A DNA stretch of 64,000 nucleotides, taken from NCBI RefSeq assembly GCF_917563915.1, contig NZ_CAKJTI010000010.1, positions 62,001-126,000 on the forward strand. The letters are read 5' to 3'. Positions 14,964 to 21,191 of this stretch are shown here, in pieces. Below the pieces are notes generated by a model. It did no database searches and was not told the DNA's origin. It saw only the letters and a program-made list of their open reading frames with translations. How positions within the stretch are numbered: position 1 is the first letter of the stretch; each line of letters starts with the position of its first letter. Both the position numbers and the translations under genes were made by a program. Source of the DNA: Bacillus rhizoplanae (GTDB taxonomy: Bacteria > Bacillota > Bacilli > Bacillales > Bacillaceae_G).

Positions 14964-14983
14964 GTTCATATTCCGTTCATATT
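14964..14983 (+). promoter_or_regulatory. HssR-type direct repeat upstream of MMPL gene
   Basis: Two perfect GTTCATATT units separated by CC, followed three bases later by TATTCT as a -10 candidate. This is the known HssR-binding repeat form. Confidence 0.82.
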
Positions 14984-15028
14984 TCTATTCTAAAATTTTC
15001 CTGAAATTAAAAAAGGGAGGTTATACAT

Positions 15029-17248
15029 GTGATTAATCGTCCTTTATACAAACTTGCTCGTTTCATAAGTAGTGCAAAAGGTGCCAAAATAGTTTTAATC
15101 GGCTGGATTCTTGCTATTGGCGTTTTAAGTTTCATCGCACCAGCAGCCAAAAAATACGCAACAAGCAGCGGTGAAGGAAGCATACATGAAGATACTCCAT
15201 CTGCTGTAGCTCAAAAGATATTTGACGAACAATTTCCATCCAAAGACGGATTAGTAGCCTTGCTTGTTTTTCATGGGAAAGATGCGATCACTGAGAGCGA
15301 GCGTGCAAAAATCTCAGAAATTAGCAAGTGGCTTTCTTCAGATGATAAACCAAAAAATGTAGCAAGTGCATTACCATTCCACCAACTCCCCAAAGCCACA
15401 CAAGATAAAATGTTTTCCAAAGATAACACGACCATTCTTTTAAATGTTGCGATGACAAAAGGTTTAGAATCGAATCAAATTTATGAGACATTAGAGCAAA
15501 TTCGAAACCATGTAAAAGAAACAGGTATAGGAGATTTACAGTTTGAGATTACAGGCCCAGCTGGGATTGCAGCGGATACGATTACACTTTTCAAAAATGC
15601 TGATTTCGTATTGATGTTTGCAACAATAGGGTTGATTCTAATTATATTAATCATAATTTATCGCTCTCCCCTACTCGCCGTCATTCCATTAATCATTGCG
15701 AGTATTGTATATCAAGTAGTGGATCGTATATTAGGATTGGCGGGCCAAAATGGATGGTTTGTCGTCGATAAACAAGCACTTTCGATTATGATGATTTTAC
15801 TGTTTGCAGTTTTAACGGATTATTGTTTATTCATCTTAGCTCGTTATAAAGAGGAATTAAAAAAGATTGATTCGAAATACGATGCTATGCAAGTCGCATT
15901 GACACAAGTAATGGAACCTATTCTATTCAGTGGTGGAACGGTACTTATCGCAATGCTTACATTGTTTTTTGCTGCTTTTAAACCGTATCATCACTTTGCT
16001 CCAGTATTTTCAGTTGCCATGGTGATCATTCTTCTCGGAGGTATTACACTAATCCCAGCTATATTTGCACTAGTAGGACGAAAAGCGTTTTGGCCTTTCG
16101 TTCCAAAAATAGCGGAGAAAGAAGAAAAGTTAAGCGGCTTTTGGAAAAATGTAGGCAGTTTTGTAAAGAAAAAGCCTACAATCACAGCAGGTATACTATT
16201 AGTTATGCTTATTCTTGCTTCACTTAACGTTGGATCCATGAAATATTCATTTAATTTAATGAAGTCATTTCCGAATGACATTTCATCGCGGCAAGGTTTT
16301 GAAATTTTAGAAGAACGCTTTCCACCAGGACAATTAGCACCCGTTACTGTCATTTTGAAATCAGATAAAGAAATTGCATTAGACCAACCATTTGTTGAAA
16401 AATTAGCTTCATTATCAAACTCAATCAAAGAACTAGATGGAGTAAATGCCGTCACCCCTGAAATCACTTCAGGATTATCCGCACCCAATTCGAACTTGCC
16501 AAAAAATTTCTTATCAGAAGAAAAGCATGCCATCAGACTGCAATTGACTTTACAAGACAATCCTTACGACAAAGCAGCTTTAAATACAATAAATACACTG
16601 CGAGAAAACAGTAACAGTTTGTTAACGAAGAGCGGCTTTGATTCACAGCAATATTCCTTGCATTATAGTGGGCAAACCGCACAGCAACTAGATGTGCGAT
16701 CTTTAAATGAAAAAGATACGATCGTAACGTTCTCACTTATTTCAATTTTCATTTTCATTATGCTTGTGTATCAATCAAGATCCATCATCATAGCGCTAAC
16801 GATGATAGTAACAATGTTACTTTCCTATGCTGCAACTTTAGGACTGGGTTGGATGATCTTTCATCATATTTTAGGCTACGATTCGATTAGCTATCGTCTA
16901 CCTGTCTACACCTTTGTTTTTCTTATTGCATTAGGGGTCGATTATAATATTATGCTTGTATCCCGCATCAAGGAAGAGGCACAAAAGTATGAATGGAAAG
17001 AAGCGGTGGCACGTGGAGTCGCTTTAACGGGGGGCGTCATTTCATCAGCTGGTATCATACTCGCAGCTACATTCTGTGTACTCATTACGCAACCACTTCA
17101 GGAACTCTTTCTGTTCGGTTTGACGATGACAATGGGGATTTTAATTGATACGTTCCTTGTTCGTGGTATGCTGCTCCCTTCGATTCTAATTTTTTTCAAG
17201 CCAAACCGTTCCAAACATATTTCTTCAATCCCAACAGATTTGAAATAA
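15029..17248 (+). CDS. MMPL-family (RND-like) membrane transporter, probable heme-stress regulon member
   Basis: The 739-residue protein has two repeats of one helix, a large external loop and five helices, as in MMPL transporters. The fourth-helix region carries LLFAVLTDYCLFILARYKEE and its counterpart LIALGVDYNIMLVSRIKEE; the two aspartates correspond to proton-relay residues. The start is GTG at 15029 with AAAGGGAGG upstream, since ATG two bases earlier is followed by a stop. It would export a hydrophobic compound. A perfect HssR box in its promoter suggests induction by heme, an association I do not recall being described. A bcr1 copy follows the stop. Confidence 0.85.
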   Translation: MINRPLYKLARFISSAKGAKIVLIGWILAIGVLSFIAPAAKKYATSSGEGSIHEDTPSAVAQKIFDEQFPSKDGLVALLVFHGKDAITESERAKISEISKWLSSDDKPKNVASALPFHQLPKATQDKMFSKDNTTILLNVAMTKGLESNQIYETLEQIRNHVKETGIGDLQFEITGPAGIAADTITLFKNADFVLMFATIGLILIILIIIYRSPLLAVIPLIIASIVYQVVDRILGLAGQNGWFVVDKQALSIMMILLFAVLTDYCLFILARYKEELKKIDSKYDAMQVALTQVMEPILFSGGTVLIAMLTLFFAAFKPYHHFAPVFSVAMVIILLGGITLIPAIFALVGRKAFWPFVPKIAEKEEKLSGFWKNVGSFVKKKPTITAGILLVMLILASLNVGSMKYSFNLMKSFPNDISSRQGFEILEERFPPGQLAPVTVILKSDKEIALDQPFVEKLASLSNSIKELDGVNAVTPEITSGLSAPNSNLPKNFLSEEKHAIRLQLTLQDNPYDKAALNTINTLRENSNSLLTKSGFDSQQYSLHYSGQTAQQLDVRSLNEKDTIVTFSLISIFIFIMLVYQSRSIIIALTMIVTMLLSYAATLGLGWMIFHHILGYDSISYRLPVYTFVFLIALGVDYNIMLVSRIKEEAQKYEWKEAVARGVALTGGVISSAGIILAATFCVLITQPLQELFLFGLTMTMGILIDTFLVRGMLLPSILIFFKPNRSKHISSIPTDLK

Positions 17249-17256
17249 CCTTAAGG

Positions 17257-17413
17257 TAAAGTGAAATTTCCATATCAGTGGGGGGTTTTTCATCCCCCCT
17301 GATGGAAAGCCCGCCCAATCGGGCACATGCCAGCAGTTATCCCCCACCTATCTTCCTCGCTTCTCTCTTAATCTTCAGGTGAGGGTCTTACTGCCCGTGA
17401 ATAGCAGGATAAT
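17257..17413 (+). repeat. bcr1 repeat after MMPL gene
   Basis: Full-length copy from TAAAGTGAAATTTCC to AGCAGGATAA with the usual inner hairpin, CCCAATCGGGC and GGTGAGGGTCTTACTGCCCG blocks. Confidence 0.85.
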
Positions 17414-17467
17414 GAATGTTGCATCCTCCATTTCTTATGTTAGTGGTTCATCGTTTTAATGAAATGA

Positions 17468-20308: not shown

Positions 20309-21021
20309 TGGTAACAGAAGTGAAATGGGATAACCCAGTGTCATTATTAAAGCTTGAACAAGTAAGTAAAGTATATGGCGAAGGAGATACAGAAGTAACT
20401 GCCCTTCATCCAATTACGTTAGATGTAAAAGCGGGCGAATTTATCGGTATTGTTGGTCCATCAGGTTCAGGAAAAAGTACATTGCTTTCCATTGCAGGTG
20501 CACTTCTATCTCCTTCAAAAGGAAACATTTATATTTCTGATCAAAACGTAACGAATTTATCAGAAAAAGAGATGACAAGTATTCGTCTAGAAAAAATTGG
20601 TTTTATATTCCAATTTGCAAATCTCGTACCTTTCTTATCGGTTAAAGAACAACTTTTATATATCGCTAAGTTAAAGGGAGAAAATAAAAAAGAAGCTGAC
20701 AAGCTTGCAACTGAATTACTGAAAACATTTGGATTATCACATCGAATGAATCATTATCCGAATCAACTTTCAGGCGGTGAAAAACAACGTGTAGCCATCG
20801 CTCGTGCTTTTATGAATAATCCAGACTTAATTTTAGCTGATGAACCTACTGCTAGTCTTGATTCAAAACGCGCTAGAGAAGTAGTTGAATTAATGAAGCA
20901 TGAAGTTAAGAAAAACAAAAAAGCAGCAATTATGATTACACACGATGAAAAAATGCTTGATGTATGTGATCGAATTTTAACACTTCGAGATGGAAAATTA
21001 CTACGAGAAAACGAAATTTAA
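20308..21021 (+). CDS. hrtA: HrtA, heme efflux ABC ATPase
   Basis: A 237-residue ATPase of the MacB/LolD type: Walker A GPSGSGKST (50-58), Q-loop region FQFANLVP, signature LSGGEKQRVAIARA, Walker B LILADEPTASLD and the switch histidine in ITHDEK. It pairs with HrtB. GGAGGTG inside the hrtB end serves as its ribosome site, so expression is coupled. Confidence 0.94.
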   Translation: MVTEVKWDNPVSLLKLEQVSKVYGEGDTEVTALHPITLDVKAGEFIGIVGPSGSGKSTLLSIAGALLSPSKGNIYISDQNVTNLSEKEMTSIRLEKIGFIFQFANLVPFLSVKEQLLYIAKLKGENKKEADKLATELLKTFGLSHRMNHYPNQLSGGEKQRVAIARAFMNNPDLILADEPTASLDSKRAREVVELMKHEVKKNKKAAIMITHDEKMLDVCDRILTLRDGKLLRENEI

Positions 21022-21039
21022 GAGTTAGTAGTAATCTAA

Positions 21040-21083
21040 AAAAACTTTCTTATCCCCTATCTGACTAGGGAATAAGAAAGTTT
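21040..21083 (+). terminator. Terminator after hrtA
   Basis: AAAACTTTCTTATCCCCTA, a short loop and its near-complement ending AAGAAAGTTTT, then CTTTC. Confidence 0.85.
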
Positions 21084-21171
21084 TCTTTCATTTAAAGCAT
21101 ATTTTCATTTTTATTTACAATATAACACAATTTTAATATAATAATTAGGCAAATTTCATATGTAATATTGC

Positions 21172-21191
21172 GTTCATATTCTATTCATAAT
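21172..21191 (+). promoter_or_regulatory. HssR-type box upstream of hsmA-like gene
   Basis: GTTCATATT CT ATTCATAAT: same spacing as the hrtB and MMPL boxes with two changes in the second unit. Confidence 0.72.

What the first reader, a model, noticed from the sequence alone, without database searches (positions are those of the whole stretch)
14964..21191. Heme-stress regulon: four HssR-type boxes, one before an MMPL transporter
Seen: GTTCATATT-NN-GTTCATATT occurs perfectly at 14964 (MMPL) and 19167 (hrtBA), and in close form at 17530 (hssS) and 21172 (HsmA-like). Known: HssR binds this repeat at hrt promoters in Staphylococcus and B. anthracis. Inference: the MMPL pump and the HsmA-DUF2871-CcdC unit belong to the heme response, a wider regulon than hrtBA alone.
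Basis: partly seen in the sequence, partly recalled or inferred. Interest (0 to 1): 0.72.

Follow-up and report, generated by a model that had tools for sequence, protein, structure and literature searches.

The report
Heme-stress regulon missing its regulator
Four neighbouring bacterial gene units share one switch sequence used against heme poisoning; comparison with many relatives indicates that an MMPL-type pump and a small heme-protein-like membrane protein belong to that response, while in this stretch the gene for the switch protein itself is missing.

Summary
The four boxes are real. A weight matrix trained on 35 hrtB-promoter sites of other Bacilli finds exactly these four in the window (31.6 to 49.8 bits; next best -2.2; best in 2 Mb random sequence 17.7). 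All four also carry TGTAAT 11 bp upstream and a -10-like hexamer 27 bp downstream of the first GTTCAT. The wider regulon gains strong comparative support. The window's MMPL lies in an 11-gene clade (100/99) whose members all have the box; nine stand directly behind hssRS, and nine of the ten relatives gave no HrtB. HsmA is boxed in 23 of 27 genomes that have it, and occurs in 17 of 19 genomes whose hssRS has no HrtB, MMPL or SHP (small histidine-rich membrane protein) beside it, against 6 of 72 others. So HssRS seems to drive exchangeable targets. Heme induction in this strain is doubtful unless hssR lies elsewhere or a paralogue stands in. Heme as MMPL substrate is inference.

The parts
14953..14996 (+). 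HssR-type promoter of the MMPL gene: TGTAAT unit, perfect double GTTCATATT (14964-14983), -10-like TAAAAT at 14991-14996
   Evidence: 45.5 bits, second best in window
15029..17248 (+). MMPL/RND pump, 739 aa, GTG start; in an 11-gene clade that is boxed throughout
   Evidence: nearest solved structures MmpL4/MmpL5
17315..17362 (+). core of repeat copy A between MMPL and the stranded box
   Evidence: wider similarity
17454..17516 (.). 29-nt inverted repeat with 5-nt loop, likely a terminator between MMPL and the next box
   Evidence: for the repeat; terminator role inferred
17519..17562 (+). HssR-type promoter, 3 mismatches, read as the stranded promoter of the missing hssR; now faces hssS
   Evidence: 33.9 bits; boxes about 260 to 290 bp before hssR in two relatives, G260 and G262
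17630..17677 (+). core of repeat copy B, in the place where comparators have hssR
17744..19138 (+). hssS, heme-sensor-type histidine kinase, 464 aa, open and with its phospho-acceptor, N and G motifs
19156..19199 (+). HssR-type promoter of hrtBA, perfect double repeat at 19167
   Evidence: 49.8 bits
19226..20308 (+). hrtB, heme exporter permease
20308..21021 (+). hrtA, heme exporter ATPase
21161..21204 (+). HssR-type promoter of the hsmA unit, 2 mismatches
   Evidence: 31.6 bits
21238..21615 (+). hsmA-like gene, four histidines invariant in 28 of 28 sequences
21677..22075 (+). DUF2871 gene, 61 bp behind hsmA
   Evidence: operon inferred from spacing
22089..22583 (+). CcdC (DUF1453) gene, 13 bp behind the DUF2871 gene
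   Evidence: operon inferred from spacing

Best explanation
This is an HssR regulon island with four promoters of one design: two GTTCAT half-sites 11 bp apart over the -35 position, a further TGTAAT unit 11 bp upstream, and the -10 hexamer at a fixed distance. In a complete system the kinase HssS senses heme in the membrane and phosphorylates HssR, which binds the repeats and switches on its targets. Here those are two exporters (HrtBA and the MMPL pump), the unit of HsmA, a four-histidine cytochrome-b-like membrane protein, and hssRS itself. MMPL most likely removes heme or a related toxic porphyrin or amphiphile from the membrane, since in relatives it stands directly behind hssRS where others have hrtBA. 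HsmA probably holds heme in the membrane. In this strain hssR is gone from its usual place, so the circuit is either broken or driven by a related response regulator. Shown: boxes, promoter spacing, conservation, linkage, absence of hssR from the window. Inferred: HssR binding, heme induction, pump substrate, history of the loss.
For: A matrix trained on 35 distinct hrtB sites, none from the window, finds only these four in the window; 51 of 57 hrtB upstream regions carry the design. MMPL: 11 of 11 clade members boxed; nine have hssR-hssS directly upstream, one (G303) is boxed away from hssRS; of the ten relatives nine gave no HrtB (G540 and G280 no hit at 0.001, G260 and G303 only weak 22-24% hits; G300, G311, G322, G344, G355 none at 1e-12). 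HsmA: box in 23 of 27 genomes that have HsmA; 24 of 26 upstream regions, window included, beat every shuffle; three lie beside hssRS (L205, L213, L216); HsmA is present in 17 of 19 genomes whose hssRS has no HrtB, MMPL or SHP beside it and in 6 of 72 others (these genomes are related, so the Fisher value of 1e-11 overstates). The 33-position promoter pattern has 51 hits in 24 chosen genomes against 2 for the reversed control. hssR ends within 80 bp of hssS in 106 of 106 loci with room to see it (91 genomes and 2 plasmid records). 105 HssR sequences hit the window at E<=1e-3 only at the paralogue at 26927-27679.
Against: No binding, expression or transport data. Only the window stretch is held, so hssR could lie elsewhere. 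Of 37 MMPLs in the tree 12 are unboxed and four more have hssRS behind them with a weak or no box, so this is a trait of some MMPL lineages. G333 has both a linked MMPL and a HrtB. HitR, a paralogue of HssR, can act on the hrt repeat (PMC3968170), so the repeat is not proof of HssR alone; the same paper says HssRS is not under control of Phrt and does not report a box before hssR in what I read. Six of 57 hrtB upstream regions lack the design, among them Listeria L021, best score about 0, although the Listeria hrtAB promoter is published as HssR-dependent with a direct repeat (PMC6305404). The TGTAAT unit is missing in 21 of the 23 boxed HsmA promoters elsewhere.
Confidence: 0.78

Rival explanations
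1. Re-wired regulon: with hssR gone, HssS phosphorylates the paralogue HitR, which acts on the same repeats and joins heme and envelope-stress signals.
For: In B. anthracis HssS cross-phosphorylates HitR in vivo, and HitR can regulate Phrt in the absence of HssR (PMC3968170, Discussion read). hssS is still open with its catalytic motifs. Second HssS-like kinases with a box right behind them occur in G355 and G376.
Against: No hitRS identified in the window, and the rest of the genome is not held. The window HssS departs from the family at three residues that are at least 95% conserved (194, 353, 409), which could mean decay instead.
Confidence: 0.35
2. Dead circuit: hssR loss left hssS and the boxes without function, as a recent natural knock-out.
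For: No hssR, and repeat copies at its place. A B. cereus strain (B4158) with an internal deletion in the hss-hrt cluster was among the most hemin-sensitive (PMC4896950, passages).
Against: All four promoters and hssS are still intact, which a long-dead system would not keep.
Confidence: 0.35
3. The gap is an assembly error and hssR is really there, or hssR has moved elsewhere in the genome.
For: Two repeat copies, cores 88% alike over 48 nt, flank the 17530 box and could confuse an assembly; 22 B. cereus strains were said to carry HssS-HssR, one of them impaired (PMC4896950, passages).
Against: Copy B lies between the box and hssS and is not identical to copy A, so a simple collapse does not give this sequence.
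Confidence: 0.25
4. The MMPL pump answers to HssRS but moves membrane lipids, siderophores or drugs rather than heme.
For: Nearest solved structures are mycobacterial MmpL4/MmpL5, labelled siderophore exporters. Similar boxes precede other exporter genes in relatives: an RND pump (L229), an ABC exporter (L226) and a MacA-like protein (L239) (names by eye).
Against: It takes the place of HrtBA behind hssRS in genomes in which no HrtB was found.
Confidence: 0.4

Closest known systems
HssRS-HrtBA heme response of Staphylococcus aureus and Bacillus anthracis
   Same: kinase, exporter and 20-bp direct repeat
   Different: adds boxed MMPL and HsmA units, and hssR is missing here
HitRS-HitPQ of B. 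anthracis (PMC3968170, passages and Discussion)
   Same: direct repeat differing from the hrt one by four nucleotides, cross-talk with HssRS
   Different: envelope stress and another ABC pump; no hitRS identified in the window
HsmRA of Clostridioides difficile (PMC12670364, passages)
   Same: HsmA membrane protein in a heme response
   Different: there under the MarR-type HsmR; here behind an HssR-type promoter
YdfHI-YdfJ of B. subtilis (reference title and passage in PMC5417439)
   Same: a two-component system controlling an RND-superfamily pump
   Different: another two-component system; no link to heme in what I read
HAE2 pump BC1291 of B. cereus ATCC 14579 (PMC5417439, passages)
   Same: same broad pump family
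   Different: gene number far from hrtBA (BC3222-3223), so by its listed RND pumps that strain has no such island

Membership tests
HssR-activated promoter | two GTTCAT half-sites 11 bp apart upstream of the gene | tested here: met
   all four, with 0, 0, 2 and 3 mismatches to the 18 fixed bases
HssR-activated promoter | -10 hexamer at the same distance as in hrtB promoters of other Bacilli | tested here: met
HssR-activated promoter | bound by phosphorylated HssR and heme-induced | not testable with these tools
   needs bench work
HssRS two-component system | hssR directly before hssS | tested here: not met
   106 of 106 comparator loci with room yes, window no; no HssR in the window
HssRS two-component system | HssS with HAMP, HisKA, HATPase and the sensor-domain residues conserved in the family | tested here: met
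   a match to the S. aureus residues F25, R94, F128, R163 was not tested, no S. aureus HssS was used
HrtBA exporter | FtsX permease plus ABC ATPase akin to HrtBA, behind hssS | tested here: met
HsmA family (TIGR03987) | score over the curated cut-off | tested here: met
   178 against 78.2 bits
HsmA family (TIGR03987) | binds heme | not testable with these tools
   four histidines invariant in 28 of 28 sequences; single-sequence model of low confidence
MMPL/RND pump | MMPL domain over the Pfam cut-off | tested here: met
   361.6 against 20.5 bits
heme exporter (MMPL) | transports heme | not testable with these tools
   only regulation and gene replacement speak for it

The most novel reading that the evidence does not exclude
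A clade of MMPL/RND pumps is a second kind of HssRS-controlled heme (or porphyrin) exporter in Bacilli that replaces HrtBA in a number of species; this genome keeps both pumps and has rewired or lost control after losing hssR.
Probability: 0.4. Interest if true: 0.75.

Novelty: new variant of a known kind. Interest (0 to 1): 0.6.

Why it matters
In the papers seen here HssRS is described as the switch for HrtBA. The comparison says that it controls exchangeable targets: HrtBA, an MMPL pump, HsmA, or a small histidine-rich membrane protein. It names a testable non-ABC heme exporter candidate, and offers a natural case of a kinase left without its regulator.

Tried and rejected
Whole-genome scan of the window's own genome: not possible, no genome is held. 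The genome-contig scan with HssS gave only 8 distant loci. The plasmid and phage collections and the viral contigs gave no match to the gap or its repeat; the first 50 kb of the window has one near match in plasmids, a 458-base stretch at 79.9% (50-64 kb not searched); a viral scan with HrtB found nothing. Rfam: 0 matches in 10000-26000. 'Order' and 'family' searches around G288 and G260 covered only 15 and 11 genomes, all already met. The regulator at 26927-27679 as a moved hssR was rejected: it has its own kinase beside it (25531-26940), and its relatives in L055, L056 and L063 stand apart from hssRS. SHP (the small histidine protein behind hssS in relatives) as a DUF2871 relative: only a 19-column match, hhalign probability 4%, not accepted. 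HsmA fold: mean pLDDT 63, not used for a fold search. One search, a first MMPL tree, wrongly labelled partial copies of the same genes as unboxed and was replaced, where contained copies were removed. In one search one HrtB row (L162) sits at a locus edge with a meaningless distance; L220 and L221 did not enter the HsmA set there but are counted as misses.

Full report
Observation. The four boxes exist as described. All four, aligned on the first GTTCAT, share TGTAAT 11 bp upstream and a -10-like hexamer 27 bp downstream (TAAAAT, TATTCT, TATGAT, TAACAT), so the repeats lie where a -35 element would be, the layout expected of an OmpR/PhoB-type activator (recalled). A matrix trained on 35 distinct hrtB-promoter sites, none from the window, ranks 19167, 14964, 17530 and 21172 first (49.8, 45.5, 33.9, 31.6 bits); the next best window site scores -2.2 and the best in 2 Mb of random sequence 17.7.

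Organism. No call names it; a Bacillus cereus-group chromosome is my guess from recall. Its own genome is not held, so comparisons rest on unnamed Bacilli genomes, 398 drawn by the tool from a larger class (299), and three plasmid-filed records.

hssR is missing. Of 398 genomes 215 have an HssS match at 1e-70; I looked at the best-scoring ones, 91 genomes and 2 plasmid records, and not at the rest. In 106 of 106 loci with room to see it, hssR ends within 80 bp of the hssS start; 37 further loci are cut off within 71 bases of hssS and say nothing; the window is the only locus with room and no hssR. HssR sequences from 105 loci hit the window at E<=1e-3 only inside the paralogue at 26927-27679, and the gap 17181-17800 gives two hits of E 1.8 and 6.5. 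The gap instead holds two copies of a repeat, cores at 17315-17362 and 17630-17677, 88% alike, found nowhere else in the window and not in the plasmid, phage or viral collections at the settings used. Two relatives, G260 and G262, have a box about 260 to 290 bp before hssR, so the 17530 box is best read as hssR's own promoter left behind; most other comparators show no such box before hssR. A review legend has HssR act at both hrtAB and hssRS promoters in S. aureus (PMC12670364, passages), while PMC3968170 says that B. anthracis HssRS is not under Phrt control. hssS is open with its motifs; it departs from the family at three residues that are at least 95% conserved among 108 other sequences (194, 353, 409).

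MMPL. Of 398 genomes 46 have an MMPL match at 1e-130. I examined 30 loci and built a tree of 37 genes, the window's included. The window gene sits in an 11-gene clade (100/99) in which all 11 have the box (lowest score 19.1, best of all shuffles 8.1). Nine (G260, G540, G280, G300, G311, G322, G333, G344, G355) stand directly behind hssR-hssS with the box between, G303 is boxed away from hssRS, and the window gene lies just upstream of the hssS unit. Of the ten relatives nine gave no HrtB (details under evidence); G333 has one, unboxed and without hssRS. In eight further genomes hssRS and the box are followed by a protein of about 130 residues with two invariant and one nearly invariant histidine (SHP; 25 sequences; the one tested had no Pfam match) and then MMPL. 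Of these eight, four gave no HrtB at 1e-12 (G290, G370, G462, G480) and four did (G338 in two pieces, G453, G507, G560), at 32 to 35% identity. Of the 37 tree rows 13 are boxed directly, 8 through SHP, 4 have hssRS behind MMPL with a weak or no box, and 12 have neither.

HsmA. 27 of 398 genomes have HsmA at 1e-15. 23 of 27 have the double repeat with the -10 at the same distance, 66 to 99 bp before the match; L199, L200, L220 and L221 do not; 21 of the 23 lack the TGTAAT unit. Three sit beside hssRS. Among the 91 genomes inspected, hssRS has HrtB behind it in 33, MMPL alone in 9, SHP alone in 14, other mixes in 16, and none of the three in 19; 17 of these 19 have a boxed HsmA, against HsmA in 6 of the other 72. 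The genomes are related, so this is not 17 independent events. Four histidines are invariant in 28 of 28 HsmA sequences. In C. difficile HsmA is described as a membrane heme-storage protein under HsmR (PMC12670364, passages).

Regulon size. In 24 genomes chosen because they carry such boxes or genes, the 33-position pattern at one mismatch gives 51 hits, 0 to 5 per genome, against 2 for the reversed pattern. Some extra sites precede SHP genes away from hssRS, a second HrtB-like gene, an RND pump, an ABC exporter and a MacA-like gene (ten loci looked at, names by eye); the others were not looked at.

Mechanism. Published: HssS senses membrane heme and HssR switches on hrtBA through the repeat (PMC11237747 passages; PMC6305404 passages; PMC3968170 passages and Discussion). 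Inferred here: the same activator drives MMPL, the hsmA unit and hssRS. Exporter exchange behind hssRS makes MMPL a candidate heme or porphyrin pump; its nearest solved relatives are MmpL4/MmpL5. Without hssR the island is either silent or served by HitR, which in B. anthracis receives phosphate from HssS and can act at Phrt when HssR is absent (PMC3968170 Discussion).

In print. Searches for MMPL with HssR and heme (3 papers), MMPL with heme, efflux, Bacillus and two-component (20), HssR regulon terms (3), HsmA with heme, DUF2871 or HsmR (20 of 56 listed), HsmA with Bacillus, heme and HssR (12 of 77 listed), and hssRS with hrtAB and MMPL family transporter (0) showed, in listings and the passages read, no report of an HssR-controlled MMPL or HsmA. 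The library holds open-licence papers only; the 2007 and 2009 HssR papers were not read (for the latter).

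Noticed in passing
window 14836-14853: An inverted TATACCC...GGTATA site lies between the CoA-disulfide reductase/rhodanese gene and the MMPL box, with a CsoR-family repressor at 12680-12943; it looks like a CstR-type operator (recalled).
   Followed up: no
window 17315-17362 and 17630-17677: A repeat with a 48-nt core in two copies 315 bp apart whose origin is unknown; similarity extends further; no match in plasmid, phage and viral collections.
   Followed up: partly
L090, L091, L094, L098, L101, L102 between hssS and MMPL; L228, L250, L251 with their own box: A family of about 130-residue membrane proteins with invariant H-x-H, no Pfam match for the one tested, boxed with HssR-type sites.
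   Followed up: partly
L229, L226, L239: HssR-type promoters before an RND pump, an ABC exporter and a MacA-like gene (names by eye).
   Followed up: partly
L053 behind MMPL (G260) and L128 behind hssS (G376): A similar small four-helix protein (H-L-x-G...W-L-G-S, by eye) follows MMPL in one genome and the box behind hssS in another.
   Followed up: no
G355:C11:23499-24894, G376:C1:1934884-1936279: Second HssS-like kinases followed directly by a similar box, perhaps HitRS-like systems.
   Followed up: no
window 25531-27679: A second two-component pair on the minus strand near the island.
   Followed up: partly
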